Shown here piece by piece: positions 1 to 19,800 of a stretch of 24,065 nt of DNA. The stretch lies in IMG/VR virus record IMGVR_UViG_3300006928_000086, positions 1 to 24,065 of that record; one strand, written 5' to 3'. Each line of letters opens with the position of its first letter. The stretch's first letter is position 1. The position numbers were made by a program, and so were the translations under genes. The notes beneath the pieces were generated by a model. It was not told where the DNA came from. It saw nothing but the letters and a program-made list of their open reading frames with translations, and searched no databases. This DNA comes from a virus.

Positions 1-1783
1 AAGTTTCTCCAAAAAATATATTTCTTTTTAAGGGGTCATCAGGGTTATATAAAACAAAACAAGACTCTACATAATCATTATAAATACTCGCTACATTTAC
101 TTTAGCACTCCAAGATAAAGTAGTTCCATTAAAATTAGGATCTGTGACAGCATACAACCACTTATTCTGTTCAATCCAATATAATGTAACAGCATTGCCT
201 GGACCAAGTGTTAAGCATATAGTATGTTCATAATCATGAGTGGTATTAGTACCAGTAAGGTCTATAGTACTACTATTACTAATTGCTAATGTAGAAGAGT
301 TAATTGTAGTTATTTTGGTCCAAAGATCGTCATTACCACCTCTTGACCAAGTTGTTATAAATTTATTCTGTCCTGGGTGGTAAAGAGTATCAGGATTATG
401 ATAAGCACTGTCAGCTTCAAATACCACATCACCTGCGACTCCATCTGTAGTTATTGTCGCAGCATTTCCAGATGCTACCTGAACTGAACTACAATATCCA
501 TGATAATTTTGTCTTTTCCATGTAGTAAAGATAATATTATCTGTCGGATTAAATGCTGCACTAAAATCTTCACCATGCATTGGATCTTCGCTTAGTCCTG
601 AAGAATTTCTATAGGTAAAAGCAGTATCCGAAGTAATATCTCCAACAGTTATTCCCCATTTATTGTTCGTCCATTTGCAATTTGTATTGGCAGCTCGACA
701 ACAAAATGCTACTCTATCATCAGCAATTTTCAGAGGAACAATACAACTGTAACGAGAGACATTATGACCATCCATCCCAACCGCAGCACTCCAACTTATA
801 CTAGTGGCAGAATTTACTTTACCAATTTTCACCACAGTGTTACCATTATTACCATCATCATATACAAGTAAATAACGACTGTTCCCTGCATAAACCAAAC
901 CCGTATGAGTAATACTACTGCTGCTGGTGACTGTAGATTGATAACCCCAACTAATGCTGTTATCGCTTTGGGGGGTTCCAATCATTTTATCCAGATTACC
1001 ATTAGTTCTTACAAATGTAACTAGATAAGTATTGTTATCAGGATTATAAACCATTCTGTTATCAAGTCGATCTACTTGATCATTAGTTAGATATCCTCCA
1101 TTACTAGCAGTAGCAGGAGATGTGTTAGTGGTTGTGGTTTCTTTTATTTGTTCTACTTTTCCATCTGTTCTTATCTGTACACATTTATCAGCAGCAATAG
1201 CACCTTCGGCTTCTGCTTCAATTACATTACCACCTGCAGGTAAAGCAGCCCAACTAGGAGCACCACCAGATCCTGCAGAAGTTAATACTTGACCAGTTGT
1301 TCCATAGTTAGCACCACCAATACCAATTTGACCTGCTGGACCTACACGAACTCTTTCTCCACCTTCCGTAGTCATCTTTACATGACCATCAGAACCAGTA
1401 TCTACCGTCTGAACACTTGTATTTCCTGTCTGAATTGCTGTTGCATCTATACCTGTTAATTGCGAACCATCACCATATAATGTAGTAGCACTCATAATGC
1501 CAGCAGTTACAATACCAGCAAATATTGCATTACCATTAGGATCAATAGTCGCACCAATACCTGGACTAATAGGATTACCTACCTTTATTCCACTCTTCGC
1601 TGTTACAATACCTGTCGAATCTATATTAGTTACATCTTCATAAGTTAATACACCACCTACAGTGACATCTCCTGCAAATTGTCCAGTAGTTGCAGTAACA
1701 ATACCAGTTACAACAGCACCTTTATCTAAAGATGGTGCCCCACCAGTTCTATTCCTAATGGTATTGACATTTATCTGAGACAT
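1..1783 (-). CDS. Propeller-type tail fibre protein, paralogue A (partial, 3' end outside window)
   Basis: The frame is open from the ATG at 1783 to the left edge (594 residues, no stop), so the C-terminus lies outside the window. It is a probable virion-surface fibre or receptor-binding protein. The N-terminus MSQINVNTIRNRTGG is followed by GAVVTGIVTAT, then a linker with LTYEDVTNID (about 50-60) and a conserved module VKMTTEGGERVRVGPAGQIG (135-154). From about residue 230 there are repeats of roughly 50 residues, each starting with a hydrophobic strand: NTYLVTFVR, SRYLLVYDD, DRVAFCCRA, NIIFTTWKR, NKFITTWSR, AVTLYWIEQ. Six repeats are visible and a seventh starts at the edge. The linker, the conserved module and the repeats match the paralogues at 2321-8532. 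It has its own late-promoter-like box 18 bases upstream. The ATG is chosen because the MS-I-V start matches paralogues B and C. The fibre role is inferred; the paralogy is visible. Confidence 0.93.
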   Translation of the reverse strand, partial: MSQINVNTIRNRTGGAPSLDKGAVVTGIVTATTGQFAGDVTVGGVLTYEDVTNIDSTGIVTAKSGIKVGNPISPGIGATIDPNGNAIFAGIVTAGIMSATTLYGDGSQLTGIDATAIQTGNTSVQTVDTGSDGHVKMTTEGGERVRVGPAGQIGIGGANYGTTGQVLTSAGSGGAPSWAALPAGGNVIEAEAEGAIAADKCVQIRTDGKVEQIKETTTTNTSPATASNGGYLTNDQVDRLDNRMVYNPDNNTYLVTFVRTNGNLDKMIGTPQSDNSISWGYQSTVTSSSSITHTGLVYAGNSRYLLVYDDGNNGNTVVKIGKVNSATSISWSAAVGMDGHNVSRYSCIVPLKIADDRVAFCCRAANTNCKWTNNKWGITVGDITSDTAFTYRNSSGLSEDPMHGEDFSAAFNPTDNIIFTTWKRQNYHGYCSSVQVASGNAATITTDGVAGDVVFEADSAYHNPDTLYHPGQNKFITTWSRGGNDDLWTKITTINSSTLAISNSSTIDLTGTNTTHDYEHTICLTLGPGNAVTLYWIEQNKWLYAVTDPNFNGTTLSWSAKVNVASIYNDYVESCFVLYNPDDPLKRNIFFGET

Positions 1784-1801
1784 TTTATCTTACTTTTTAG
1801 A

Positions 1802-1809
1802 TATTTATG
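1802..1809 (-). promoter_or_regulatory. Late-promoter-like box upstream of fibre A
   Basis: The minus strand reads CATAAATA, one base from the T4 late -10 element TATAAATA. It lies 18 bases upstream of the ATG at 1783 and is followed by TCTAAAAAGTA, a leader shared with the other three propeller fibre genes. There is no strong Shine-Dalgarno sequence; the leader is A-rich. Confidence 0.6.
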
Positions 1810-1856
1810 CAATAATATAGGGCAATCAATAGAGAAACTCCTCAAGTTATTTAGCC

Positions 1857-2315
1857 TTAATGAGCATCCCCATTATTACCATCAGGGTCAGTTGGCCATT
1901 TAACATCATGAGGGAATCCTTCTTGTTTAGTTATATCACGAAGTGCTTGACGATATTCTTTCCACTCTGGTTCTAATTCTCTATCACATAGTGCTCTCCA
2001 ATCACTTTCTTTTATTAGATCATCTCTTCTCTTTCTTATATTCTCTGCATATTTCTTATCAACTGATTCTTCATCTTGTTGCCTAATACTATATTTTGTA
2101 TACCATTTACCGTTTATTTCTTCTATACCATCTCTATAAGTAACTGAATATGGTGGTGGACCTTGTTTCTGTGGTCCTTCAAAGACAACATCAGTATCAA
2201 ATGCATCTAATAACTTTTCATCTAAAAGTCTAGAGAAAGAAGTATTCTTATGTCTTTTTCTAAATTCTTGATCACTTAAAACTTCACCAGTACTTCTAAT
2301 TCTATATTCAGTCAT
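1857..2315 (-). CDS. Tail assembly chaperone-like protein (Phage_tail_APC-like C-terminus)
   Basis: This 152-residue, charged, soluble protein has no signal peptide or membrane segment, unlike the Ser/Thr/Gly-rich fibre proteins around it. Residues 1-75 hold MTEYRIRSTGEVLSDQEFR, then VFEGPQ and INGKWYTKY. The C-terminal third (96-141) has the pattern KRRDDLIKESDW, then WKEYRQALRDI, then GFPHDVKWP. This resembles the Phage_tail_APC family of tail assembly chaperones (R..L...DW, YRQALRD, FP..V.WP). It starts 5 bases after the stop of fibre B and precedes fibre A, so it is probably co-translated with B and may assist folding or trimerisation of the neighbouring fibres. The family call rests on remembered motif patterns. 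The partner is inferred from position. Confidence 0.85.
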   Translation of the reverse strand: MTEYRIRSTGEVLSDQEFRKRHKNTSFSRLLDEKLLDAFDTDVVFEGPQKQGPPPYSVTYRDGIEEINGKWYTKYSIRQQDEESVDKKYAENIRKRRDDLIKESDWRALCDRELEPEWKEYRQALRDITKQEGFPHDVKWPTDPDGNNGDAH

Positions 2316-2320
2316 AAGGT

Positions 2321-4156
2321 TTATGCAGGTTGTATTAATAAAGATGTTGCTGTTAATGCTCTACCAGCAACTACATTTGGAACTGCTGCTGTAAGTGCTA
2401 GACTCCCATCATTTTGAACATAATATTTTTGTGCGGGTGTTAATCCAGATTGAGTGGTTGTATTACCCACTACTTTAACAGTTGCAGTTTGACCATTAGT
2501 ATATCCTGCTTTACTAAACCCAATCATATTTTCTCCTGTTACATCAGTTGATGGTGGTCTAATAACTTGCACCACAGCTCCTTGTCCATTAGTTGGAGCA
2601 TATGATAATACTCCTCTATTAGCAGTTGTATCCATACATGCACCAAACCATCCTCCAGTGATATTAGAACCACCAGATTGAATAGTAGTATCAGTAACCG
2701 CCTCCAGACCAGTTCCAGCAATATTGTACATCATCAATATCATATGGATATTATTACTACTATCAATATAGAAAGTTATAAATTTACTAGCAAATGCATC
2801 ATAAAGTATTGGAGATCTATAATTTTGAGTCATTACACTTGATGTTGTTGGTGTCATTGATAGATGATCATTCCAAGTTACCTTCTCAGTATTAGTATTT
2901 ACTTTTCCTACGATAGAATACACTTTATTGCCAAGAGATTCATTTGTGTATACACCTATTACATTTTGAGTATCTGGATCATACACAATACCAGGAGCCG
3001 AAGCTACTGTGGGATCCATAACAGTTAAAGTAGTTCCCCACGAAAGAGAACCATTAGCCTCAATTTTTATTACTGATGAGGTTAGTTTACTAGAATCGCC
3101 AGAATACCTAAAAAGACATACAAATCTATCAGCATTAGAGTCATAACAAACATCCATTTTATTAATCTGATTACCAACAAAATTATATTCACCCCCTACA
3201 CCTTGAGATGAACCATCCCAAGATATACTCCTAACAGATCCTTGAGAAGCACTAGATCTACTATAAAATAGTAACCATCTACCCTTTGCTGTGCTATAAG
3301 CAGCAACAGGATATTGTGCAAGAGTAGTAGAAACTTCAAAATCAGATGAAAATGAAGGAACTGTTCCACTAATACCAGTCAATATAATGGCACGGATAAA
3401 ATCATTTGTAGTAGCTCTCCATGAAATCAAGTAAATATCATCATCAGAATCCCAAGAAATATCAAGACAAGAAGAAGAATCATCATGTACAGTAGTTGCA
3501 AACTGTACTGAAGTACCAAATGTAATAGTTGTTCCACTAACAGTACCCACAGTAGCATATCCTGTATTAGATGCTCTTGAAACTACAACAACTTTATTAC
3601 TAGTAGAACTATAAGCACAATTAGTTAAAGTCATACTAGTTCTACTATCAGCAGTTACTGCATTTCCTATTGCTTGAGTAGTATTTGTAATTGCTTTCAC
3701 TTTACCATCTGATGTCAGAATAACAGTCTGATCCGCATTTATACTTCCAGAAGCTACAAGTTGTACTGTTGGAGCAGCTTCTATACCTGTAAGGTTTGCA
3801 CCACTACCATCAAAACTTGTTGCAGTAACAATACCAGTAGCAATTACACCCCTTCTTGCTGTAATAAGTCCAACTGAATCAATATTCGTTACATCTTCAT
3901 ATGTTAATGTCCCAGTAACATTCATATTACCACTTACATCAACATTACCAGTTACTACAGCACCAGTTGCATTTGCTTGTACTTTTACATTACCACTACC
4001 ATCTTTTAATGCAGTTGCATCTATCCCAGTAAGATTTGCACCACTACCACTAAAACTTGTAGCAGTTACAATACCAGTTACTACAGCACCTTTAGAAAAC
4101 CCAGGTGATCCTGTATCATCCTTATTTACAATATCATCTACAAGTAACTGTGACAT
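2321..4156 (-). CDS. Propeller-type tail fibre protein, paralogue B
   Basis: This is a 611-residue probable receptor-binding fibre. The N-terminus is MSQLLVDDIVNKDDTG. The module VVTGIVTATSF..GSGANLTGI appears twice (24-47 and 104-127), flanking LTYEDVTNIDSVGLITARRG (84-103). From about 180 to 540 I count seven repeats opening with NKVVVVSRA, DIYLISWRA, GRWLLFYSR, DRFVCLFRY, NVIGVYTNE, SKFITFYID and NRGVLSYAP, as expected for a seven-bladed beta-propeller. The C-terminal cap (about 550-611) contains GNTTTQSGLTPAQKYYV and AGRALTATSLLI and matches paralogues C and D. Unlike A and C, it lacks the VKMTTEG..RVRVGPAGQIG module; it carries the second GIVTATSF copy instead. It starts after a perfect TATAAATA box and an AAGAAG leader. 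The fibre function is inferred from repeats and context. Confidence 0.95.
   Translation of the reverse strand: MSQLLVDDIVNKDDTGSPGFSKGAVVTGIVTATSFSGSGANLTGIDATALKDGSGNVKVQANATGAVVTGNVDVSGNMNVTGTLTYEDVTNIDSVGLITARRGVIATGIVTATSFDGSGANLTGIEAAPTVQLVASGSINADQTVILTSDGKVKAITNTTQAIGNAVTADSRTSMTLTNCAYSSTSNKVVVVSRASNTGYATVGTVSGTTITFGTSVQFATTVHDDSSSCLDISWDSDDDIYLISWRATTNDFIRAIILTGISGTVPSFSSDFEVSTTLAQYPVAAYSTAKGRWLLFYSRSSASQGSVRSISWDGSSQGVGGEYNFVGNQINKMDVCYDSNADRFVCLFRYSGDSSKLTSSVIKIEANGSLSWGTTLTVMDPTVASAPGIVYDPDTQNVIGVYTNESLGNKVYSIVGKVNTNTEKVTWNDHLSMTPTTSSVMTQNYRSPILYDAFASKFITFYIDSSNNIHMILMMYNIAGTGLEAVTDTTIQSGGSNITGGWFGACMDTTANRGVLSYAPTNGQGAVVQVIRPPSTDVTGENMIGFSKAGYTNGQTATVKVVGNTTTQSGLTPAQKYYVQNDGSLALTAAVPNVVAGRALTATSLLIQPA
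3776..4087 (-). repeat. Duplicated GIVTATSF module inside fibre B
   Basis: Residues 24-47 (4016-4087) and 104-127 (3776-3847) are near-identical 24-residue modules 240 bases apart, ending GANLTGIDA and GANLTGIEA. The DNA is also close, for example CCACTACCA followed by AAAACTTGT in both copies on the plus strand. This is likely an internal duplication of a stalk element. Confidence 0.8.
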
Positions 4157-4175
4157 CTTCTTATACTTTTTTAGA

Positions 4176-4183
4176 TATTTATA
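4176..4183 (-). promoter_or_regulatory. Late promoter box upstream of fibre B
   Basis: The minus strand reads TATAAATA, an exact match to the T4 late -10 element. It lies 19 bases upstream of the ATG at 4156, in the 38-base gap after fibre C. It is followed by TCTAAAAAAGTATAAGAAG, where AAGAAG may act as a weak ribosome site. Confidence 0.72.
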
Positions 4184-4194
4184 GAGTCAAAGGA

Positions 4195-6207
4195 CTAACC
4201 TTTAACTATAAGTTTTGTTGGTGATAAAGCAGTGCCAGCTTCTACACTTGGTGTATCTGCTGTTAGTGATAGAGCTCCAGTATTTGTTACATAATACTTC
4301 TGACCTCCTGTCAACCCAGATTGTGTAGTAGTATTACCAACTATCTTGATTGTTGCAGTTGCAGTATCAGCATAATTAGCTGCTGCGAAACCTATAAAGT
4401 TTTCAGCAGTGATATTAGTAGATGTAAATGGAATATCAACAGTACTCGCACTCATATAGTCACCATTACCTTCATCTTGAGTGGCAGTAATTACTCTGTT
4501 TTTAGATGGATTAGAAGAAACATCAAGATATTGGTAATCTACACCAGCAAAAACATTTAAATTATGATTTGCATCTACTAATGCATTTCCAGAAATTGTA
4601 AACCCTTTTATCTCAGTATTTGACGGAGAACTGGTAGCAAAATAACATATTGCTTCTTTCATTGTGGTATTCCAAGCATGTTTAAAACCGTCAGTAGCAT
4701 TTTGACTCAATTCAGTTGCTGCGGTATATGTTGGTTGAGCACTAGTGTCAGTAAAAGATAGTACTGCTCCCATTGGTTTACCACCACCAAAAGCTCTTCT
4801 ATAACTTAAAATTCCTTTTCCAGTAACAGAATCGTATGATAATCCAGGTTCGTAACCCATTTGTCCAGAAGAACCAGCATCTGTATTAGCTGATGGTCCA
4901 GTAAAAGGCGTTTGAGTTGCTTGAGTCATGGTTGGTGCTGAACCTGTGCCATTAGACTTAGCCCAAGCAGCTCTAAGATAACCTCCTGCAGCTAACCAAA
5001 CACCATTAGGAGGATATAAGAACCTGTTGGAATCCTCTGTTACATACCAATACGCACCTGTTGCTGGTATATATTCCATACACGCTCTATTTTCACCATT
5101 AGCACTTGAACCACTAGTATTATTATAGTAAGTCCACGATGAATCATCCGACAGATCTACATCATTATTAGAATCTAGTTGAGCATGTCTAAATTTCATA
5201 TTATTATCAGCATTTCTATAAGCAATCATGAAACCACCATTGTTATCAGAAGCAATTGCACAAGTCCTCTGACCACTACCACCAGCCTGTATATTCATAA
5301 TAGCACCCCAATCAATATCATTACCAGCACCATTAACCACTCCACCTCTTACAGCCGCATAACCTACACCATTATTCTGTACAACAACCATAATTTTACT
5401 TGTTGATCTATCTACTGCAACTCTAGGATTCCAACAGTCTGTAGGATCACCTGTTATTATTAGTGTTGGAGTTCCAAGAGTAATAGCACCATTAGCATCT
5501 ACTGAACCAAAAATATATCTAACTTTATTACTGTCGTTCATCTTTCTTCCAGTGATTATAAACTTATCATCATTTATCCATGCGACATCCTGAGTCCTAT
5601 ATGTTCCATTGCTGGAAAGTTCTGTGTCTACCTTAGTAGTAGTTGATGGTTCAATCGTTTGCACAATTTGACTAATTGTACCATTTGCATTGGCGACACA
5701 TGGTTTATCAGCAGTAATTGCACCTGATGCAGTACCTGTTATCTCTGGAGCAGTACTTACTGTTGCCCATGTAGGTGCAGCACCAGAACCACCAGAAACT
5801 AATAATTGACCTGATGAACCATAATTAGCACCACCAAGTCCAATTTGACCTGCTGGACCTACACGAACTCTTTCACTTCCTTCGGTAGTCATTTTTACAT
5901 GACCATCAGAACCAGTATCTATAGTTTCTACTTCAGTATTACCTTTACTTAACTTACCATCAAAACTTGTAGCAGTTACAACACCAGTAGCAATTATACC
6001 CCTTCTTGCAGTAATAAGTCCAACTGAATCTATATTTGTTACATCATCATATGTCAATGTTCCACCAATACTTACATTACTAAAAGTAGCAACGCCAGCA
6101 ATAACATTGGCAAGACTAGTTATCCCAACAACCTTTACACCGTTAGGAAAAAGTGGTTCACCTGTTCCTGCCCGATCAGTAATTCTATCTACTTTAATTC
6201 TTGACAT
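4195..6207 (-). CDS. Propeller-type tail fibre protein, paralogue C
   Basis: This is a 670-residue probable receptor-binding fibre. The N-terminus MSRIKVDRITDRAGTGEP is a familiar fibre start in marine T4-like phages. The linker LTYDDVTNIDSVGLITARRG spans 51-70, followed by ATGVVTATSFDG and the module VKMTTEGSERVRVGPAGQIG (104-123), then GGANYGSSGQLLVSGG. Seven repeats are visible between about 205 and 605, opening with DKFIITGRK, SKIMVVVQN, GGFMIAYRN, GAYWYVTED, GKGILSYRR, KEAICYFAT and KNRVITATQ. The fourth is longer than the rest and may carry an inserted loop. The C-terminal cap (about 609-670) contains VGNTTTQSGLTGGQKYYV and AGTALSPTKLIV. The gene lies 38 bases before B and 39 after D. 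Fibre function is inferred; homology to A, B and D is visible at both ends. Confidence 0.95.
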   Translation of the reverse strand: MSRIKVDRITDRAGTGEPLFPNGVKVVGITSLANVIAGVATFSNVSIGGTLTYDDVTNIDSVGLITARRGIIATGVVTATSFDGKLSKGNTEVETIDTGSDGHVKMTTEGSERVRVGPAGQIGLGGANYGSSGQLLVSGGSGAAPTWATVSTAPEITGTASGAITADKPCVANANGTISQIVQTIEPSTTTKVDTELSSNGTYRTQDVAWINDDKFIITGRKMNDSNKVRYIFGSVDANGAITLGTPTLIITGDPTDCWNPRVAVDRSTSKIMVVVQNNGVGYAAVRGGVVNGAGNDIDWGAIMNIQAGGSGQRTCAIASDNNGGFMIAYRNADNNMKFRHAQLDSNNDVDLSDDSSWTYYNNTSGSSANGENRACMEYIPATGAYWYVTEDSNRFLYPPNGVWLAAGGYLRAAWAKSNGTGSAPTMTQATQTPFTGPSANTDAGSSGQMGYEPGLSYDSVTGKGILSYRRAFGGGKPMGAVLSFTDTSAQPTYTAATELSQNATDGFKHAWNTTMKEAICYFATSSPSNTEIKGFTISGNALVDANHNLNVFAGVDYQYLDVSSNPSKNRVITATQDEGNGDYMSASTVDIPFTSTNITAENFIGFAAANYADTATATIKIVGNTTTQSGLTGGQKYYVTNTGALSLTADTPSVEAGTALSPTKLIVKG

Positions 6208-6225
6208 TGGTTATTACTTTTTAGT

Positions 6226-6233
6226 TATTTAGG
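6226..6233 (-). promoter_or_regulatory. Degenerate late-promoter-like box upstream of fibre C
   Basis: The minus strand reads CCTAAATA, two bases off TATAAATA, and lies 18 bases upstream of the ATG at 6207. It is followed by the shared leader ACTAAAAAGTA. The match to the box is weaker than for B, so support comes mainly from its conserved position and leader. Confidence 0.45.
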
Positions 6234-6246
6234 TGGGTTATACAAT

Positions 6247-8532
6247 TTATCTGACCAGCAATTTATTTGCAGCAATTGAATTACCAGCATCAATACTCTC
6301 ACTGTCTGCTGTAGTACTCAAAGTTCCATCAGCAACAACATAATATTTTTGTCCAACAGTAAGACCAGAGACTGCTGTATTTACTGCTCCAGGAAGAGCT
6401 GTTGAGGCAGTTTGTCCATTAGTATAAGAAGCATTAGCAATTCCAACATAATTACCCTTAGTCAAATTAGATACTCTTATAGCTTCTATGTAATATGCTG
6501 CTTTAGCCCCACCTATATCAGTTCTATTCATCATTAAAAAGTTCGCTGCATTTGTATTATAAACAACAATCCCGTTGTGAGTAGTTGCATTACCAGCAGT
6601 CTGGAAAGTATGCGGAGTAGAATATGTTATTGTAGTTCCAGTTAATGTTGTAATTAAACTTTTAACATAATCAGAACCACTACCATCAACATATGATATC
6701 ATAAATTTCTTTGGTCCTGCACCATATGATATTACTTGTCTGTAAGTAATACCAACATTAAATTGTGCTGCAGTACCGAAAGTAAAAGTAGTTCCACTAA
6801 GTGTTGCAGCTCTACAATTTCCTCTATTACTACTAGCAGCATAACATATAACATTTTTTCCTGAATCAGAATCATGAGCACCACTAAATTGAGCACCATC
6901 TTGATTATCTCCATTAAACTCCTGTCCAGTACCAAAAGTAACTGAATCATTAGCTACTGTTCCAGCCCATACATACCCATGATTACTATCACCACCATGA
7001 TGTGCCACAATACATAATTTATTTGCTGTTGTATCATACCAACATCCTGTTCCTCTAGCTTGTGCATTTAAAAACTGAACTTTATTATTAGGCCATGAGC
7101 TGCTGTTAGTGCCAGAATATTTTCCAATTCTACACCATCCTTTATTAGTTCCTCCATCATTAAACACCAAAGCATAATTACCTGTATTAGGACAAAAACA
7201 GAATGAATTATACTCCATATGATTACTATCAGTTGCATTATTAACTGCTGTACCAATTGTTATAGTTGTACCACTAACATCACAAACTTGTACTGATGCA
7301 GAATTACTTTGAGTATTATCTCGATAAGCAACAACAACTTTTTCATTAGTGGAATCATAAATTGCAACAAGGTTTGATGGATTTACTGAACCTGGGGTAA
7401 ACTGTTGCTTTGATGTCCATGTAATACTAGATCCACTTGGTGTACCAATCTGTACTTGTCCTATATCACCACCATTTGTATCTCTCCAGAAGTATAGATA
7501 TCTATCAGCAGCTGCATGATAAGCTATAGAATAATCATTAGTAGTCTCACCCACTACTGTTGAAGTCCCCTGTAATTCATTACTACCAGCAACACCCATC
7601 AATTTACCATCATCAGCAACACAAACTCCTTTACCTCCAGTTATTGATCCTGAAGCAATTCCTGCAAATTCTGGAGCAGAACTAACTGTTGTCCATGAAG
7701 CATCAGCACCAGGACCACCAGAAGTTAATAATTGACCTGATGTTCCAGTTGCCTTACCAGCACCAAGACCTATATCACCAACTACATCAATACCACCACC
7801 AGCAATATCAATACCACCAGTAGTTACTTTAATTCCTTTTCTTGCAGTAATAATTCCAACTGAATCTACATTAGTTACATCTTCATATGTTATTGTTCCC
7901 CCAACAGATAAGTTACCGCCAATATATACACTTTTTGCAATACCAACACCACCAAGAACTTGTAATGCACCTGTAGTAGGAGAAGTTGATTGAGTAACAT
8001 TAGTAATAGTAGTAATGCCCGCTGAGACAAAACCTAAAGGGAAATTAACAGAAGTCTGACCACTTTGATTGTATATATTATCTACATATATGTTACCAAA
8101 TACACCATTACCTCTAGCAGCATAATCAACATTAGTACCTGTAGCAATTCCTAAAACATCAACTAATAAATCATCACCATCAGACACTATAATTTCTTTC
8201 GTATCCTCAATAACAATAGTAGGAGCTTGAGTATATGCAATATGTCCACTGTCAGGAGGATTAATTGTTGAAGTTGTATTTACAAGAACTTCATTATTAG
8301 TATAATAAATTGTATTAAGTGCCTTTGTCTTATCTTCACTTAATGCTGTTCCTATACCAGCAGAGGCAATACCATCTAAAGTAGAACCATCACCATAAAA
8401 TGATGTTGCACTAACAACACCAACTACATTGACTTTTTCTTTTGGGTCAAGGGTACCAAAACCAACATCAGTGCCGTTAACAGCAATAACATCGGTATTA
8501 CCTAATTTAGCGAGATCTCGTGCTCTTGACAT
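6247..8532 (-). CDS. Propeller-type tail fibre protein, paralogue D
   Basis: This is a 761-residue probable receptor-binding fibre. Its N-terminus MSRARDLAKLGNTD differs from A-C but is another common marine-phage fibre start. Stalk modules follow: VVSATSFYGDGSTLDGIA (39-56), GALQVLGGVGIAKSVYIGG (188-206), ITYEDVTNVDSVGIITARKG (214-233) and GTSGQLLTSGGPGADASW (263-280). Residues about 325-700 hold seven repeats opening with DRYLYFWRD, EKVVVAYRD, GNYALVFND, NKLCIVAHH, GKNVICYAA, KKFMISYVD and ANFLMMNRT; many contain GTTITFGT-like second strands. This is the clearest of the four seven-blade patterns. The cap (about 698-761) contains SGLTVGQKYYVVADGTLSTTADSES. It is first of the four paralogues in transcription order and starts 24 bases after the stop of the LamG gene. 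Confidence 0.95.
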   Translation of the reverse strand: MSRARDLAKLGNTDVIAVNGTDVGFGTLDPKEKVNVVGVVSATSFYGDGSTLDGIASAGIGTALSEDKTKALNTIYYTNNEVLVNTTSTINPPDSGHIAYTQAPTIVIEDTKEIIVSDGDDLLVDVLGIATGTNVDYAARGNGVFGNIYVDNIYNQSGQTSVNFPLGFVSAGITTITNVTQSTSPTTGALQVLGGVGIAKSVYIGGNLSVGGTITYEDVTNVDSVGIITARKGIKVTTGGIDIAGGGIDVVGDIGLGAGKATGTSGQLLTSGGPGADASWTTVSSAPEFAGIASGSITGGKGVCVADDGKLMGVAGSNELQGTSTVVGETTNDYSIAYHAAADRYLYFWRDTNGGDIGQVQIGTPSGSSITWTSKQQFTPGSVNPSNLVAIYDSTNEKVVVAYRDNTQSNSASVQVCDVSGTTITIGTAVNNATDSNHMEYNSFCFCPNTGNYALVFNDGGTNKGWCRIGKYSGTNSSSWPNNKVQFLNAQARGTGCWYDTTANKLCIVAHHGGDSNHGYVWAGTVANDSVTFGTGQEFNGDNQDGAQFSGAHDSDSGKNVICYAASSNRGNCRAATLSGTTFTFGTAAQFNVGITYRQVISYGAGPKKFMISYVDGSGSDYVKSLITTLTGTTITYSTPHTFQTAGNATTHNGIVVYNTNAANFLMMNRTDIGGAKAAYYIEAIRVSNLTKGNYVGIANASYTNGQTASTALPGAVNTAVSGLTVGQKYYVVADGTLSTTADSESIDAGNSIAANKLLVR

Positions 8533-8545
8533 TATACTTTTTAGA

Positions 8546-8553
8546 TATTTAGG
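8546..8553 (-). promoter_or_regulatory. Degenerate late-promoter-like box upstream of fibre D
   Basis: The minus strand reads CCTAAATA followed by TCTAAAAAGTATA, 13 bases upstream of the ATG at 8532. The leader is shared with fibres A-C. The spacing is the shortest of the set and the upstream stop at 8557-8559 nearly touches the box. Confidence 0.45.
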
Positions 8554-8556
8554 GGT

Positions 8557-11355
8557 TTACGCATGAGCATAATATATGTATCTCATTCCAGTACCATTAA
8601 CATATGAACCACCATCGGTTATAGTAAATCCATTATCACTAGGTAGACTAATAAGAGGGTCAGCTTGATTAGTGAGGTTGTTGTTCATTCGCAACCACAA
8701 ATCCTGACCACCACTTAGTCCAGTTGCTGCATTAATACCTCTTGTAGTATCTAATTGATACCAACTTCCGTCTGTACCATCAGATCGTTTTATAATAACA
8801 AATCTTGGTCGGAATCCTGTTGTTATTGCTTGTGCTGAACCTGTTCCATCATAATAACCACACTTACTTACTCCATTAATACTAGCAAATAAATACATAA
8901 CGAAATTAAAACCATTTTGATTGACTGCATTATTATCTCCTACTGTGACAGTTGTTTTTGTTGGTGCAGTATCATTCCAATAACTAATATCATCTGAATC
9001 TCCATTTGCTTCATTTAAAAATATTCTATAATTTTCAGGATTAGTTCCACTATTCAGTCCTACATGATAAACACCCCAATTCGTACTATTGTCCCTACTC
9101 TTCACCCATATCATTTCTGGAACAGCATTCATACCATGAGTGAATTGCCTACCAGCAGTACCATTCCCCTTATAAGCGACTACATCATGAGTAAGACCTC
9201 GTTTCCATCCCCAAGTTTGCCACGAAGTATTGTCACCTGTATATGATTGCCATCCACGAGGATAATCCCATTCCCAATATTGGTTATAAGCTTGTGTAGT
9301 AGTATCATTACATTCCAGAACTGCTTTACCCGTTTGTCTTGTACCCATTAACCAAGCAGAACCTCCTGCAGGTTGTTTCATTATACATGTATCAGGAGCA
9401 AAGGGTAAAGTACTAGTTGCAGTATAATGATTTGGTGTTCCTGCTCTTGAATATGCACTGTGGAAATAATTTGCAGCAGTATCTGCAGTAGGTGGTCTCC
9501 CCACTTTACCATCAGGTCTTCGGATTGCCAAATATATGTACTTATTACTACTAACTCCATTAATATGGTTATAATCAACATCAATTTTAAATCCTGTAGT
9601 TGTTACATGTAACCAATTAATACTTTGTCTTTCAGTTGCATTAGCACTAGTTTCTATATCAAATTCAGCACCTTCACTAGATGTTCCAGAAGTACCCATA
9701 TTTGATATTTGTCTAGCAGTATCAAAAAGTATCCAATGTTCAGTACCACCCACTGCCCGTTTTATATAAATGTATTGAGGTTCCCAACCTAAATTAATTT
9801 CAGGACCATCATTAGATCCATTACCAGTATAACCACCACATTTAACTATAGATTCATCATCTTCACCAAACCCACCTGCATCATGTGCAAATAGATAGGC
9901 CATATAAGTACCATCGACATGATTAACTTGCTCATGCGTACCTACAGTGAAATTTAATTCTGTTGGTGCAGTATTATTCCAAGAGGTTGGTGAAGCAACT
10001 GCCTCATTTTGCAGATCTAACCATATTGCATAATTTTGTGGAGTTGTACCCCCATTGTTACTCCTATGATAAACTCTCCAATTAGAACTTGATCCACCAC
10101 CATCAATTCGTTTGATCATCATCATTCCAGGCACACTACCTAAATCATGAGGGATTTGACGATTAGCACCATTACCACTGTATTGAAGTTGAGTAAAGAA
10201 TCTCTTTTGCGTTTTAAAAGTCCAACCCACATATTGTTCTCCAGTAGCATTAGATCCAGCACCATTATTCTGTACAGTAAATCCTCCAGCATTAAAAGTC
10301 TTAATATGATATCCAGTATCAGTACCAACTTGAGTAGTATTAGTAAAACTATATGATGTACCTCCTCTTATGCTATCAACAATATTAGGATTACCAGTAT
10401 TAGATCTTCCCTTAAACCATACCATACCCCCATCACTAGAAGTACTAGAAGTAAATGGTCCAAAAGCCTCAGATGATGGAGCTCCCATTTTTTGAGATCT
10501 AAGCTGATAAGGATATGCAGTTTGCTTAGTTGCTGCGGATACAGTTGCTCCCTGACAACATAAGAGTTTTACATTACTCGCAGTTACACCTTGACTTGTT
10601 GTTGTTAATGGTTCTGTTGATGGTGTAAAGTTAGCACTATAAACTGGTTGTCCTACTGTTAAACGAAAATTTGATATATATCCTGTAAATTGTCCACCAA
10701 TTCCATTATGTCCACTGGCAGCACCCATAACAAAATCAGAATTACCATTACGGATAGTAGTATTGTTTTGTGTTCCAGTACCATGCATAACACCGTCTGT
10801 AAACAAACGGAATGTCAAATTACCACTAGCTAAGGTTCTGGTAATTGCAACATGATGCCATGAATTCTTTGACATGGTACCACCCTGAATTGGACCAACA
10901 AAGTTGTTATCAGAATCATAATAATAAAACTCTAAATCACTTACATTTGCATCTTGTGTACCAACAAATTCCCAAACATAACCAGTGGTTCCAGACCCCC
11001 AATTACCCCAAATTACATCATAGTTATCAAAGGCTCCTTCATGATAAACCCATGCTTCCATACAAAACTCATTATTACCTAAACAATAATCAGCTGTATA
11101 TCTACTTGTTAAAGAATCATTAAAACCATTAAAATATACACTTCTTCCTGAATTAGCAGTTCCTAAATTTATAGCATTAGGTTGGGATTGTATAGGTTTA
11201 TCCTCTCCAGTTGACAAATATAATGAAGGTGCAAATACATCATCCACATAGGTAATATCACCACCCCCACCAATTAAAGGACTACCAACTCCTCCACCAA
11301 GACCAGTAAGTCCTAAAATTGGTCTCTCTTTCTTTGCAGGTATTATGTCTTTCAT
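8557..11355 (-). CDS. LamG-like lectin and duplicated Trp-rich module fibre protein
   Basis: This 932-residue probable virion adhesin opens with a short Gly-rich leader (1-40). A laminin-G/concanavalin-A-like domain (about 66-245) shows RSVYFNGFNDSLTS, FCMEAWVY, NSWHHVAITR and LFTDGV, then GYISNFRLTVGQPVYSANFTP. Next comes a region with MVWFKGRSNTGNPNIVDS (311-328) and two large homologous modules (398-612 and 735-930). Each has a P..I.IKR strand, NW.VYH, P.NY.I.L, WN.TAPT..T.TVG and a second P...IIKR half. This resembles the DUF7483-type arrangement common in marine phage fibres. The ATG at 11355 lies 6 bases after the stop of the 257-residue fibre with no clear Shine-Dalgarno sequence, suggesting translational coupling. 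The LamG call is motif-based; glycan binding is inferred. Confidence 0.95.
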   Translation of the reverse strand: MKDIIPAKKERPILGLTGLGGGVGSPLIGGGGDITYVDDVFAPSLYLSTGEDKPIQSQPNAINLGTANSGRSVYFNGFNDSLTSRYTADYCLGNNEFCMEAWVYHEGAFDNYDVIWGNWGSGTTGYVWEFVGTQDANVSDLEFYYYDSDNNFVGPIQGGTMSKNSWHHVAITRTLASGNLTFRLFTDGVMHGTGTQNNTTIRNGNSDFVMGAASGHNGIGGQFTGYISNFRLTVGQPVYSANFTPSTEPLTTTSQGVTASNVKLLCCQGATVSAATKQTAYPYQLRSQKMGAPSSEAFGPFTSSTSSDGGMVWFKGRSNTGNPNIVDSIRGGTSYSFTNTTQVGTDTGYHIKTFNAGGFTVQNNGAGSNATGEQYVGWTFKTQKRFFTQLQYSGNGANRQIPHDLGSVPGMMMIKRIDGGGSSSNWRVYHRSNNGGTTPQNYAIWLDLQNEAVASPTSWNNTAPTELNFTVGTHEQVNHVDGTYMAYLFAHDAGGFGEDDESIVKCGGYTGNGSNDGPEINLGWEPQYIYIKRAVGGTEHWILFDTARQISNMGTSGTSSEGAEFDIETSANATERQSINWLHVTTTGFKIDVDYNHINGVSSNKYIYLAIRRPDGKVGRPPTADTAANYFHSAYSRAGTPNHYTATSTLPFAPDTCIMKQPAGGSAWLMGTRQTGKAVLECNDTTTQAYNQYWEWDYPRGWQSYTGDNTSWQTWGWKRGLTHDVVAYKGNGTAGRQFTHGMNAVPEMIWVKSRDNSTNWGVYHVGLNSGTNPENYRIFLNEANGDSDDISYWNDTAPTKTTVTVGDNNAVNQNGFNFVMYLFASINGVSKCGYYDGTGSAQAITTGFRPRFVIIKRSDGTDGSWYQLDTTRGINAATGLSGGQDLWLRMNNNLTNQADPLISLPSDNGFTITDGGSYVNGTGMRYIYYAHA
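8566..10164 (-). repeat. Duplicated module within the LamG fibre gene
   Basis: Residues 398-612 (9520-10164) and 735-930 (8566-9153) align in order: VPGMMMIKR with VPEMIWVKS, NWRVYHRSNNGGTTPQNY with NWGVYHVGLNSGTNPENY, WNNTAPT with WNDTAPT, TYMAYLFA with NFVMYLFA, KCGGYTGNGS with KCGYYDGTGS, and YIYIKR with FVIIKR. The intervening 613-734 segment is different. The coordinates cover both copies and the spacer. Confidence 0.85.
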
Positions 11356-14303: not shown

Positions 14304-16880
14304 CTAAGTTGCAACTCTAATAACAACTTTAGCAGATGTAGTACTTCCACCTTGAGTAGTACTTACAACAGTAACAGATCCATCACCATATCCAGAACCT
14401 CCTCCTCCTCCACTATTACCACCAGCACCTGTTCCAGAATTTCCACCTTTTGCACCATTTCCTCCTCTAAATCCACCTGTATGTGGACCTCCTGCTGTCT
14501 GAATAATATTATAACCCGATTTATATCCTCTATGAATAAGACCAGTATTAGCTGCTTCTCTACCATCAGGAAGTCTAAAATGCGATTCAGTTGGATCTAA
14601 TATATCTTGACAAGGACTTAAACCTTGTTGTCTAAAATAAACTCCTTTGGTACAACTGATTGTATGTCCACCAGTGTTATTCCCACTTTGTCTATCTCCA
14701 GGATATACGAAAGGTGCAATATAAGCAGAACCAAATTTTCCATTAAGAGATAATCCACCTATTGATGACTGAACTGTTTGACCACCTCCCCCACCACCTC
14801 CAGCAGGAGCATCTGCACCTGGAATATTAATACCACCACCATTTCCACCTCTTTGACCAACCACTCCCGATCTACCAGCTTCACCTACACATGCTATTAA
14901 TGCAGCTTTTCTATAAAGAAATGGAGTATTCACATTATCTGTAAGACCAGCAATAATATATTCTTCATTTTGTTTCATAGTAAATCTTATTCTTCCAAAT
15001 CCACCTTCACCAGCACTAGCATCAGAAGCACCACCTCCCCAAAGATCCATTTCTACATCCAAATCTTTATCAGGAGAATATAAAGAATAAAGTTGAATAG
15101 TAGGTGCAGGACCAGCAAAACCAGTTCCAATAGTATCTAAAGTTAATTCACCATTAACAAGATTAGTTGTAGATATATTAGCAACAGTACTATCTAATCC
15201 AATACCTTCAACAGTAAGATTTGCATCTGTAACTGTTGATTCTACATGATAATCTACCTCATCTGAAGCAACAGGAGAATTAGATGCAATTGAAGAACTA
15301 ACATTACATTTTACAGTATAACCAATACCTGGTCCATCAGTATTCAATGTTAACTGATTAGTCGCAGAACCACTTACTGTAGTAGTTCTTGTTACAGGAG
15401 TAGGAACTATTGCAGTTTCATCAACAGTATAATGTACTCCTGCCCATCCACCACCAGTAGGATTAGAAGAACCACTTCTATATTCTACATGATTTGGCAT
15501 ATAAGAACTCATTCCTTGTACACCGCCAGGAGAACCACTTGGTCGATGTCCATGATGTCCACCACCTCCACCTGGAGCTCCAGCACCTCCACCTCCACCA
15601 CCAGGAGTGTCACTACCTTGACCATCATGTCCAGGAGAACCAGCATTACCTGGATCTGGATTGCTGTTATTTGTTACCCACGACATAGTAGAGGGACTAT
15701 ACCTACCTCCACCACTCGTTCTTACTGGACCAGCATCCATACCATTAGCACCATTTCCAGATTGAGACCCAGTACTATTAAAAGCACCGCCGCCTCCACC
15801 ACCGCCACCAGCGATTATTGATGCTGAACCATTAATCATTATCACAGAAGAAGCACCACCGCCACCTCCTCCACCAGCATCTCCAGAACTCGTATTGTTG
15901 CTATTCCAAGTACCACCCCATCCATGTGCTCCACCAGGTCCACCTCTCTGATTTACATTCTCTGCATTTCCTCCTGCAGCATTTTCTCTAGAACCTACCA
16001 TTCCATCATTTCCTCTTCTTCCAGCATATAATCCAACTGTAAGTGCATTACCTAATCCAAGATTTGGATTACCTGAATGATAAAAATTATTACCTATATG
16101 AAACCAACCAGTCATTCCTCTTCCACCTCTGCCACCTTTTCCACCTTGACTAACAACTCCTTGTGGGAAATTTCCACCACCTGTTCCACCTGCAGCACCT
16201 GCTATTTCAAATACAACATTCTTTGCTCCAGCAGGTACCGTAATAGAGTTACTACCACCCATAGGTGCATACTGTGATACTCTATTTTGCGTAGTACCTG
16301 GTATTTCTTCTACAGTACTTTTAGTAATTGTCCCATCACTTACATTTTCCCCATCCAATTGCCATTGAAATCCTATATCTGTTCCATTATCACTTAATGT
16401 AGCATTTATATTAAAATTATTGTCTGTAGATGGAATAGTTACAACAGTAGTTGGTTGAGCATTAATTTCAATTACAGGAAAAGAAGTTAATTCAGCTGAA
16501 TCAGAAGTAAGAGGTTCATTTACAGCATTACCTGTCTCAGATGAAGGAACATAATCTACCACAGCATAATAAGCCCCAACATCAGTAGGACTAGTTACAT
16601 TCGTTACCTGTAAAGTTGAAGTTTTTGTTCCTACATACTTAGTTCCTTCTGTTAATACTCCCAAAGGTCCATACCATTGATAAGCAATAGTACCCGTATT
16701 AGAAGAGGGAGCACCATCAAATGTTGCTATAGCATTTACTGTAAAAGTTGCTGTTGGTCCTCCTGTTTGTCCAGGAGCAACTCCTGCTACTTGTAATGAG
16801 GTGGGTTGAGTATTAAAAGACAGAATTGGACCATTAAGATCCAAATCTGTCGGGATGTCTCTAAAAAGTTGATTGTCCAT
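14304..16880 (-). CDS. Ig-like and glycine-rich tail adhesin
   Basis: This 858-residue virion protein resembles large marine-phage adhesins. Ig-like domain 1 (about 18-133) shows YQWYGP with the core Trp and GAYYAVVDY. Ig-like domain 2 (about 137-546) is split. Its first strands (NINATLSDNG, then FQWQLDGENVSDGT at 171-184) are separated from its last strands (SATNQLTLNTD, YTVKCNVSSS, ASDEVDYHV) by a glycine-rich insert (229-456) with runs of six to eight Gly. A third segment (550-858) starts beta-rich, has DLDVEMDLWGGGASD, GFGRIRFTMKQNEEYIIAGL and LIACVGEAG, and becomes a second glycine-rich domain (614-832) closing with SVTVVS and KVVIRV. Glycine-rich domains of this kind bind receptors in T4-like adhesins such as gp38 by polyglycine packing. 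The stop overlaps nothing downstream. The ATG overlaps the stop of the 1944-residue gene (TAATG), implying coupling. Confidence 0.95.
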   Translation of the reverse strand: MDNQLFRDIPTDLDLNGPILSFNTQPTSLQVAGVAPGQTGGPTATFTVNAIATFDGAPSSNTGTIAYQWYGPLGVLTEGTKYVGTKTSTLQVTNVTSPTDVGAYYAVVDYVPSSETGNAVNEPLTSDSAELTSFPVIEINAQPTTVVTIPSTDNNFNINATLSDNGTDIGFQWQLDGENVSDGTITKSTVEEIPGTTQNRVSQYAPMGGSNSITVPAGAKNVVFEIAGAAGGTGGGNFPQGVVSQGGKGGRGGRGMTGWFHIGNNFYHSGNPNLGLGNALTVGLYAGRRGNDGMVGSRENAAGGNAENVNQRGGPGGAHGWGGTWNSNNTSSGDAGGGGGGGASSVIMINGSASIIAGGGGGGGGAFNSTGSQSGNGANGMDAGPVRTSGGGRYSPSTMSWVTNNSNPDPGNAGSPGHDGQGSDTPGGGGGGAGAPGGGGGHHGHRPSGSPGGVQGMSSYMPNHVEYRSGSSNPTGGGWAGVHYTVDETAIVPTPVTRTTTVSGSATNQLTLNTDGPGIGYTVKCNVSSSIASNSPVASDEVDYHVESTVTDANLTVEGIGLDSTVANISTTNLVNGELTLDTIGTGFAGPAPTIQLYSLYSPDKDLDVEMDLWGGGASDASAGEGGFGRIRFTMKQNEEYIIAGLTDNVNTPFLYRKAALIACVGEAGRSGVVGQRGGNGGGINIPGADAPAGGGGGGGQTVQSSIGGLSLNGKFGSAYIAPFVYPGDRQSGNNTGGHTISCTKGVYFRQQGLSPCQDILDPTESHFRLPDGREAANTGLIHRGYKSGYNIIQTAGGPHTGGFRGGNGAKGGNSGTGAGGNSGGGGGSGYGDGSVTVVSTTQGGSTTSAKVVIRVAT
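14385..15041 (-). repeat. Glycine-rich domain 2 coding region with GGN-codon tracts
   Basis: Residues 614-832 are rich in Gly, with AGGGGGGGQ at 693-701 and GGNSGGGGGSGYGDG near the end. On the plus strand this appears as CCX trinucleotide tracts. The sequence between tracts is varied and contains Trp, His and Cys, compatible with loops displayed from a polyglycine core. Confidence 0.75.
15513..16196 (-). repeat. Glycine-rich domain 1 coding region with GGN-codon tracts
   Basis: Residues 229-456 contain four runs of five or more Gly, at about 336-342, 358-365, 427-432 and 437-441. Plus-strand CCX tracts lie near 15780-15810 and 15855-15880. The segment sits between strands of the second Ig-like domain. 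The tracts could favour slippage or recombination; no frameshift is seen. Confidence 0.75.
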
Positions 16881-19800
16881 TATGAGAAGTTCTGACCTCC
16901 GATTACTCCATATAGTCCTGAACCTACAGGATTAGACCCATCAAATATCTTAAAGGAGTAAATATCAGTCTTACTTGCAGTGGTTGTTACTGTCGGAATA
17001 ACTCCTCCTGGCCAGTAGACTGGTATCGTATTTCCATTAAACTTAAAGTTATCTATAGCAATAGAATCACCTCCAGTATCATCCTGACTAACCCTAATTG
17101 TAAAGGAGGTTGCCCCATCAGGAGGATTTATAAGATTAAACTGACTGATGTTTCCATCTGTTGCAGTACAAATAAATGTCTGTGCTTCAGATAGGTCAAC
17201 AGTTACAACACTACCAACATAAGTAAGAATTCCAACATTCTCCGAATAGGTCTTAAGTTTTGTATGACCTTGTACATCTAATGTAGAAGTTGGTTGTGTA
17301 CTGTTAATACCAACTGAACCAATACCAGAGGTAGCAATTACAGTTCCACCAGTACCAACATGAAGATTAGTAGTTGTTACAACACCTACTGTTGCATTTC
17401 CACCCAATACATCAACATTAACTGCAGTTGTAACTCCACTTACAAATACATCATTAGCAGTAAGAATTCCAACAAGTTTTACTTCACCATTAGCATATAA
17501 TGAAGTTGTAGAAGAACCAACTGCACCAAGTTCAAGATTGTATCTTGAAGCAGTAGTACCAACACCAACATTATTCAAATCAGTATTGTATATTCCACCA
17601 GTAACTTGAGTCCATCCAAGTGCAGAAGCATTTAGAGTTGTTAATCCAGAACCATCACCAACAAACATACTTGCAGTAAGTACTCCAGCAATATTCGTAT
17701 TACCAACTACATGAAGAGAATATCCATTAGCAGTTGTGCCAATACCTACTCCTTCTGAATCAAGTGCGATTAAGGATGTTCCTGAACCAACTTGTAACTT
17801 ATTAACTCCAGGTGTTGTAGTACCTATTCCTACTTGGTCAAAGAGTGCAATGTTCTCATCCTTAGAAAGACTTACACTACCAAACCTTCTCCAATCATTA
17901 TCTACACTATAAACCCAACCAACAAATCCACCATCTGATGGGTTTGAGTAGTAAGTAACATCACCAGGTGCTCCAGATAGTGAAGGAGCAGAACCACTTA
18001 AGGTATACTTTCTTGAAACTGTTTGGTCACCTTGAATATAATAAGACTGTGCTTCAATACCTCTAGAAGAATTAGAAGTTAGTTTGTTATTAACAATGAT
18101 TGGACCATTAAACTCAGAAGCAACCTTATTGTCTGCTCCACCTTCAATCTTAATAGAACGATGTACATTAACCTCGGTAACATCACTAACATTTAATCCA
18201 GCAATATCACTAATATCCTCACCAGTTACTGTAGCAACAGGTGTATTAAAGATTTCCTCTTTACCAGTAGCAGAACTTAGTCTCTTATTACCATTGTAAG
18301 AAACACCCTTATCATTCATTCCAGTATAGAATACTGCTCCACCATCATTTTTAGTGGATTGTGCTAAGAGTTCTTCAGTAAATGTAATCTGTCTATCTTG
18401 CTTATCTGGGAATGCAGTAGAATAATTACCTGGACCAAACCCAACATACTCAAAGGTATGACCAGAAGCACGAATAATTGAGTGTCTTCTAAGTTCAACT
18501 GGATTTGCAGAAACTTTTCTAATTACACTATTAACGGTATGACTTGTTCTCTTAGTTCCTAATACACCACGGAAAACATAAAGTGGATTACTACCAGTAG
18601 TTGTTGTCTTAACTCTTACAAGTTCATCATCAACCATCAAGTAATCACCAATGTTAACATCCAACTTAGATAGATTAGTAAGATTTACTTCATCTATATT
18701 TGGTGTTGCCATATCACCAGATAATGTAGTAGTAATTCCAGCATATGTTGGAACCATTCTACCGTTCAAGTTTTCATTATCAACTGTAATAACACCATCA
18801 TTAGAAGCATAACCTTCACGATATGCATATAAAGTTCCTGTTGCAGTTGGTGCAAGAGTTCCTACTCCAACCTTAACTGAGAATGAATTAAGATTAATAT
18901 TCTCATTAACTACAAAGCTTCCATTATAAAGTGCTTCGTTTGCTCCAGTAAAGGTAACCTTATTATCAACTCTTAATCCATGACGATTAGTTGTTGTAAC
19001 AGTAGCAATACCAACATCCTTATTATAAACTAAAGTATTAATTCTAACTGATTCACCTGTTGAATAGAAGTAAGAACCATCACATAAAGTAGAACCAACA
19101 TCAGTAGAGAATCCTGTTATCGTAGATGCAGACTCAACAGTTACTGTCTTAGCAGCACCAATCTCAACACCAGTAATTCTATGAAGTTGATTATATCCAG
19201 CATAGGATTCAGAACCCACACCAATAACTCTAACAGTATCTCCAACATTATCGTAAATATTATCAACCTCAACAACTGCTTGGGTATATGGTGCAAAAGT
19301 TGTAACTCCAGTTATTGCAAGAGTATTACCTATACCATAAGCACTACCACCATCCATTATCTTAACAGCAGTAATAGCACCATTACCATCAACAGTAATC
19401 TTAGCAGTTGCATTATGACCAGTAACAGAAGCACCTATAGCAACTAAAGATGCATTGTAAATATCTCCAGCACTTCCTGAACCATAACCCGCACCAGCAG
19501 TAGCAACACTAACCTTAGTAATACGATTTAATCCATGATCAATATCAGTATGAATCGTATGAGCAATTCCACTAACAGAATTAATATTAGAAATATTAAC
19601 ACCAATATCAGTATCAGAATTAAACTTGTTTAAAGTTTCTCTTGTTACACTATTTTGAACATCATCAACTACAACATCACCTATTAAATCAGGAGTTGCA
19701 AAAGAAACTGTTGGGTCTGGGTCTGAATTTGGATTATCTCTATTAGTTTGTGGATAAAGATCACTTACTGGTTGAGAAAACTTCTCATCATTAAATGGAG

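What the first reader, a model, noticed from the sequence alone, without database searches (positions are those of the whole stretch)
1..8532. Array of four paralogous fibres, each with a predicted seven-bladed propeller head
Fibres B, C and D each show seven roughly 50-residue repeats opening with a hydrophobic strand (such as EKVVVAYRD, GNYALVFND, KKFMISYVD in D). Fibre A shows six, with a seventh starting at the window edge. All complete copies end in one C-terminal cap (SGLT.GQKYYV, then AG.AL..TKL). Conserved N-terminus and cap with divergent blades suggests a multi-receptor or host-range array in which different propellers are displayed on a common shaft. The blade count is my own reading of the sequence; I do not know of a published description of this fold in these phages.
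Basis: partly seen in the sequence, partly recalled or inferred. Interest (0 to 1): 0.72.

Follow-up and report, generated by a model that had tools for sequence, protein, structure and literature searches.

The report
Swappable propeller-headed phage tail fibres
A marine cyanophage-like genome fragment carries four neighbouring tail-fibre genes that each end in a seven-bladed beta-propeller; the same head occurs in hundreds of uncultured phage contigs and has been swapped between fibre shafts, so it is probably an interchangeable host-recognition tip that is almost absent from cultured phages.

Summary
The window is a whole 24-kb viral record from a T4-like cyanophage. Four minus-strand genes, A to D, end in a domain of ~51-residue repeats. 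A blade profile trained without this contig or its near relative scores D 182, B 99, C 31 and A 19 bits; the best of ~1,000 shuffles scores 7. AlphaFold2 gives seven-bladed propellers for D (pLDDT 89, pTM 0.84) and for C, the weakest complete copy (80, 0.79). Of 150 non-redundant related heads, 96 have exactly 7 detected repeats and 8 exactly 14. A runs off the record in its seventh repeat.

Corrections: D does not share the A-C N-terminus. The 'cap' is the second part of a cement-like domain (Pfam PF09956); the propeller appears inserted in it. The array is not unique: a related 77.8-kb contig has five such fibres. There D's head (93% identical) sits on a different shaft, and A's shaft carries a different head. 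All four genes have the same late-promoter-like leader, so are probably co-expressed.

Best reading: an exchangeable set of receptor-binding tips. Ligands are unknown and binding is untested.

The parts
6247..8532 (-). Fibre D, 761 aa
   Evidence: ORF; shaft matches phage tail-fibre families
6463..7566 (-). Fibre D propeller, seven blades
   Evidence: AlphaFold2 pLDDT 89.1, pTM 0.84; PDB match Z 32.5; blade HMM 182 bits
7579..7671 (-). Fibre D linker: first strands of the cement-like domain
   Evidence: Modelled strands at head residues 2-26; linker+cap match PF22758 E=0.00018 and PF09956
6250..6462 (-). Fibre D cap: rest of the cement-like domain
   Evidence: Cap HMM 7e-30
4195..6207 (-). Fibre C, 670 aa; propeller about 4417-5661, linker 5662-5745, cap 4198-4416
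   Evidence: AlphaFold2 pLDDT 80.4, pTM 0.79, seven blades; PDB match Z 33.8
2321..4156 (-). Fibre B, 611 aa; propeller about 2534-3664, linker 3677-3766, cap 2324-2533
   Evidence: Seven blade-HMM matches and cap; 98.7 bits in held-out test
2..1783 (-). Fibre A, cut by the record end; linker 1139-1225, incomplete propeller 2-1138
   Evidence: Blade HMM 19.2 bits in held-out test; open at record end
1857..2315 (-). Tail assembly chaperone (Phage_tail_APC), between A and B
   Evidence: PF16778 E=1.7e-18
1794..1807 (-). Leader TAAATATCTAAAAA before A
   Evidence: 4 copies in window, 0 of 100 shuffles reach 4
4168..4181 (-). Same leader before B
6218..6231 (-). Same leader before C
8538..8551 (-). 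Same leader before D
3805..3930 (-). Shaft module of B; copies in C 5955-6080 (87% DNA identity) and D 7791-7916 (69%)
   Evidence: family D1
1248..1427 (-). Shaft module of A just before its linker; copy in C 5765-5944 (82%)
   Evidence: family D3
5704..5821 (-). Shaft end and linker of C; copy in D 7630-7747 (79%)
   Evidence: family D5

Best explanation
A to D are tail-fibre proteins of a T4-like cyanophage. Each has a repetitive shaft ending in a head: a closed seven-bladed beta-propeller inserted into a loop of a small cement-like beta-domain, whose first strands lie before the propeller (the linker) and the rest after it (the cap). Linker and cap form a constant socket; the propeller is the variable tip that contacts the host surface, most likely glycans, through the loops of one face. 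The four genes share a late-promoter-like leader, so the phage probably makes them together and displays several specificities at once. New tips are gained by recombination in the conserved shaft and linker DNA. Shown: sequence anatomy, predicted fold, repeat count, module swaps, spread across phages. Inferred: trimeric assembly, co-display, receptor binding, ligand type.
For: Fold. Repeat number fixed at 7 or 14. Held-out statistics. Split cement-like domain. Head swap (D head 97.0% DNA identity on another shaft) and shaft swap (A shaft 91% DNA identity up to the end of the linker, then a different head), with flanking genes at 67-75%. Conserved shaft DNA between paralogues. Amino-acid change concentrated in BC and inter-blade loops, same face, without synonymous excess. 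Own leader for each gene. Chaperone gene in the array.
Against: No binding data, no ligand and no virion data. Fibre A is incomplete. Loops are generally freer to vary, so one-face variability is not specific to receptor binding, and codons in that test are not independent. Most cement-domain matches are below the curated cut-offs. The cap fold was not modelled alone, and no trimer was modelled.
Confidence: 0.75

Rival explanations
1. The propellers are enzymes (glycan depolymerases or sialidase-like hydrolases) that degrade host surface polymers rather than only bind them.
For: Sialidases and other glycan-active propellers are among the Foldseek matches; phage tail tips often carry depolymerases (general knowledge).
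Against: No Asp-box in A to D and in only 9 of 182 relatives. Across 79 heads the only near-invariant propeller positions are two Gly and one Asp, with no conserved catalytic set. The sialidase matches have high rmsd.
Confidence: 0.12
2. The fibres are alternatives used one at a time (a switching or donor repertoire), not displayed together.
For: Tandem paralogues with conserved shaft DNA could act as donors for gene conversion; head and shaft swaps are seen between phages.
Against: Each gene is open with its own leader. No inverted repeats of 18 nt or more in the array. No reverse transcriptase in the related 77.8-kb contig, which is incomplete.
Confidence: 0.1
3. The propellers are structural spacers or particle-to-particle adhesins with no role in host choice.
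For: Propellers serve as structural parts of phage nozzles (PMC9509320); the cap resembles capsid cement proteins; in AG-345-O18 the head is not at the C-terminus.
Against: Extreme head divergence between neighbouring paralogues with conserved shafts, module swapping and one-face variation fit recognition better than scaffolding.
Confidence: 0.1

Closest known systems
Phage receptor-binding proteins with propellers: phi11 RBP (five blades), PhiKZ gp131C (seven blades, 4GBF), PRD1 P2 (distorted five blades), as listed in PMC4901313
   Same: Propeller domain in a tail or spike protein thought to contact the host; PhiKZ gp131C also has seven blades
   Different: Not among the PDB matches shown, so relation untested; no array, no cement-like socket described in the passages read
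PLL-type seven-bladed lectins of Photorhabdus, Burkholderia (BP39L) and Chromobacterium (CV39L)
   Same: Closed seven-bladed ring, Z 29-32 over about 315 residues; glycan binding is a plausible shared function
   Different: 6-13% sequence identity, free-standing secreted lectins; ligand residues not compared
Lentibacter phage vB_LenP_ICBM2 ORF49
   Same: Only cultured phage found with the head: 90% coverage at 25% identity, blades plus cap, flanked by tail assembly chaperone genes
   Different: Short-tailed roseophage, no cyanophage-type shaft, a single copy found
Phage cement proteins (PF09956, PF22758)
   Same: Linker plus cap match across the junction; cap passes the PF09956 cut-off in 4 of 25 related records
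   Different: Here part of a tail fibre and interrupted by a propeller, not a free capsid protein

Membership tests
Seven-bladed beta-propeller fold | Seven consecutive blades of about four antiparallel strands | tested here: met
   Models of D and C; 7 or 14 repeats in relatives
Seven-bladed beta-propeller fold | Ring closed, matching solved closed propellers over the full length | tested here: met
   Z 32.5 over 311 residues to YncE (D); Z 33.8 over 342 to CylK (C). Predicted models only
Phage receptor-binding protein | Located on a tail fibre | tested here: met
   Shafts match tail-fibre families; gene neighbourhood and chaperone
Phage receptor-binding protein | Binds a host receptor and determines adsorption | not testable with these tools
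   Inferred from position, one-face variability and precedent only
PLL-type lectin family | Sequence homology to PLL lectins | tested here: inconclusive
   Only marginal sequence matches (CV39L E=0.73; PLL3 E=0.0096 on the linker) and 6-13% identity in structure alignments
Phage cement domain (PF09956) | Score above the curated family cut-off | tested here: inconclusive
   Met by caps in 4 of 25 related records (26.5 vs 24 bits); fused linker+cap of B and D below it, C with no match
Sialidase superfamily | Asp-box repeats | tested here: not met
   None in A to D; 9 of 182 relatives

The most novel reading that the evidence does not exclude
A previously undescribed, widespread class of phage host-recognition module: a seven-bladed propeller plugged into a split cement-like socket, used as an interchangeable tip on unrelated fibres of marine phages, as single copies, 14-blade doubles, chains of four in one protein, and gene arrays that may display several specificities at once.
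Probability: 0.55. Interest if true: 0.72.

Novelty: new variant of a known kind. Interest (0 to 1): 0.6.

Why it matters
How uncultured marine phages choose hosts is largely unknown because their fibre tips are unannotated. This head has no recognisable propeller family of its own in Pfam, is found in one cultured phage and one single-cell virus among 50,697 phage records, yet its cap is found at 345-372 places in viral contigs. The signature (linker, 7 x 51-residue blades, cap) makes such tips recognisable, and a constant socket with a swappable propeller is a directly testable model of host-range change in cyanophages.

Tried and rejected
Known repeat classes: WD40, kelch, FG-GAP and Asp-box signatures do not explain the heads. 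Diversity-generating retroelement: considered because D's head and its relative differ by 33 nonsynonymous and 4 synonymous codons; no reverse transcriptase in the 77.8-kb contig and changes are not confined to adenines. Invertible cassette: no inverted repeats. A viral scan with the full-head alignment could not run, no stretch being conserved enough; A's head alone found no relative. Pfam PF18050 (cyclophilin-like) matches 28 of 79 heads; it conflicts with the predicted fold and I take it as repeat-driven. PDB sequence searches gave nothing useful for linker+cap. PhiKZ gp131C, phi11 RBP and PRD1 P2 were absent from the PDB rows shown, which says nothing about their relation. Bacterial or archaeal origin: the single hit in a cellular genome set is a contig with phage-like lysis genes. 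The full T4 late promoter TATAAATA alone is not enriched.

Full report
What was checked. The window is the complete 24,065-base viral record. The main genes run on the minus strand, and the long protein at 16880-22714 places it with T4-like cyanophages: full-length 62-64% identity to Synechococcus phages Bellamy and S-SM2 and to marine virus AG-345-O18. The four fibre genes are at the stated places.

Are the repeats real? A 51-position blade profile was trained on other loci only, leaving out this contig and its near relative G001. It scores D 182.1 bits, B 98.7, C 30.7 and A 19.2; the best of 1,000 shuffled versions scores 7.3. Fibre A is open at the record end: six repeats and the start of a seventh by eye.

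Are there seven blades? C, the most divergent complete copy, is modelled at pLDDT 80.4 and pTM 0.79, again with seven, with a low-confidence insertion around blade 4. PDB alignments cover the whole propeller: D to YncE Z 32.5 and PLL-type lectins Z 29-32; C to the CylK propeller Z 33.8 and YncE 30.7. Independently of prediction, 96 of 150 non-redundant heads have exactly seven profile matches and eight have exactly fourteen; 127 spans from first blade to cap are 340-400 residues and nine are 680-800. Heads with fewer matches mostly have the same span, so weak blades are missed rather than absent. A repeat number fixed at seven or fourteen is what a closed ring requires and an open stalk would not.

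What is the cap? The heads have a linker before the first blade (ASGxIxxGxxVxxxxDG) and the cap after the last. With the propeller removed, linker plus cap matches two phage cement families: for D, PF22758 at E=0.00018 across the junction. Of 20 fused sequences 13 match PF09956 and 10 match PF22758 at E<=1, against 6 and 1 of 13 for cap alone (the sets differ). In 4 of 25 records of related phages the cap passes the PF09956 cut-off. The best reading is one cement-like domain with the propeller inserted in a loop. This is supported by sequence but not shown structurally.

Modules move. The paralogues share shaft DNA: 87% over 126 nt between B and C, 82% over 180 nt between A and C, 79% over 118 nt between C and D, while their heads are about 20-24% identical in protein. 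Against G001 (77.8 kb) two opposite swaps are seen. D's head is 97.0% identical in DNA to the head of a G001 fibre with a different shaft and N-terminus, although homologous flanking genes are 67-75% identical. A shares 91% identical DNA with another G001 fibre from nt 281 to 645 of the gene, that is to the end of the linker, and then the heads differ. G001 has five propeller fibres.

Where do heads vary? In 22 close pairs, amino-acid differences are most frequent in BC loops (0.236 per codon) and between blades (0.243), and lower in AB turns (0.155), CD turns (0.091) and strands; synonymous differences are not enriched there. BC and inter-blade loops lie on the same face in propellers (general knowledge of the fold). 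D and its G001 partner differ in the head by 33 nonsynonymous and 4 synonymous codons (dN 0.037, dS 0.012), a shortage of synonymous change with simulated p of 0.01-0.04. One pair is weak evidence for diversifying selection.

Expression. TAAATANCTAAAAA occurs exactly four times in the window, directly before A, B, C and D; 0 of 100 shuffles reach four. In G001 seven of nine copies lie directly before fibre-type genes, with and without propellers. It resembles a T4-type late promoter (knowledge of the group). There are no inverted repeats of 18 nt or more in the array. Simultaneous expression is the simplest reading. A tail assembly chaperone lies between A and B.

Spread. The cap finds 372 and 345 relatives in two overlapping scans of viral contigs; 38 of 119 loci hold two to four different head genes (some loci come from the same contig). 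Several loci encode 14-blade proteins, and L042 has four caps and 28 blade matches in one protein. Among 50,697 phage records only Lentibacter phage ICBM2 and single-cell virus AG-345-O18 were found with it; B's head finds none.

Known or new? Propellers in phage receptor-binding proteins are known (phi11, PhiKZ gp131C, PRD1 P2; PMC4901313), and propellers also serve structurally in nozzles (PMC9509320). The paper describing ICBM2 notes a variable tail-fibre region, and the passages found mention no propeller (PMC6775973). Searches of the paper library found no description of this family, but that library omits most subscription journals. I therefore file it as a new variant of a known kind. 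The receptor-binding role remains inference.

Noticed in passing
window 1794-1807, 4168-4181, 6218-6231, 8538-8551 (minus strand): The leader TAAATANCTAAAAA occurs only before the four propeller fibres in this window; in the relative G001 and in cultured phage Bellamy it also precedes other genes. It looks like a late promoter or leader class of these phages.
   Followed up: partly
window 6250-7671 against L023 6001-7422: The two D-type heads differ almost only by nonsynonymous changes (33 vs 4 codons), 20 of them in blades 1-2 and only 3 in blades 3-6.
   Followed up: partly
L116 1-5225: A contig binned as a Euryarchaeota MAG encodes four cap-ended propeller heads in one open frame next to phage-like lysis genes; probably a virus contig binned by mistake.
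   Followed up: partly
L009 3683-6241; L078, L105, L107, L109, L110, L115: Single proteins with 14 blade repeats and one cap, probably two seven-bladed propellers in series.
   Followed up: no
window 8557-11355: A 932-aa protein with DUF7483 and a weak laminin-G match sits next to fibre D; similar proteins alternate with fibres in G001, suggesting another head or adhesin class.
   Followed up: no
L118 (ICBM2) 2875-6879: Three tail assembly chaperone genes alternate with fibre-type genes, one of which carries the propeller, much like the chaperone between A and B.
   Followed up: no
L117 16264-19551: In single-cell virus AG-345-O18 the propeller and cap are followed by about 250 further residues, so the head is not always the C-terminal end.
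   Followed up: no
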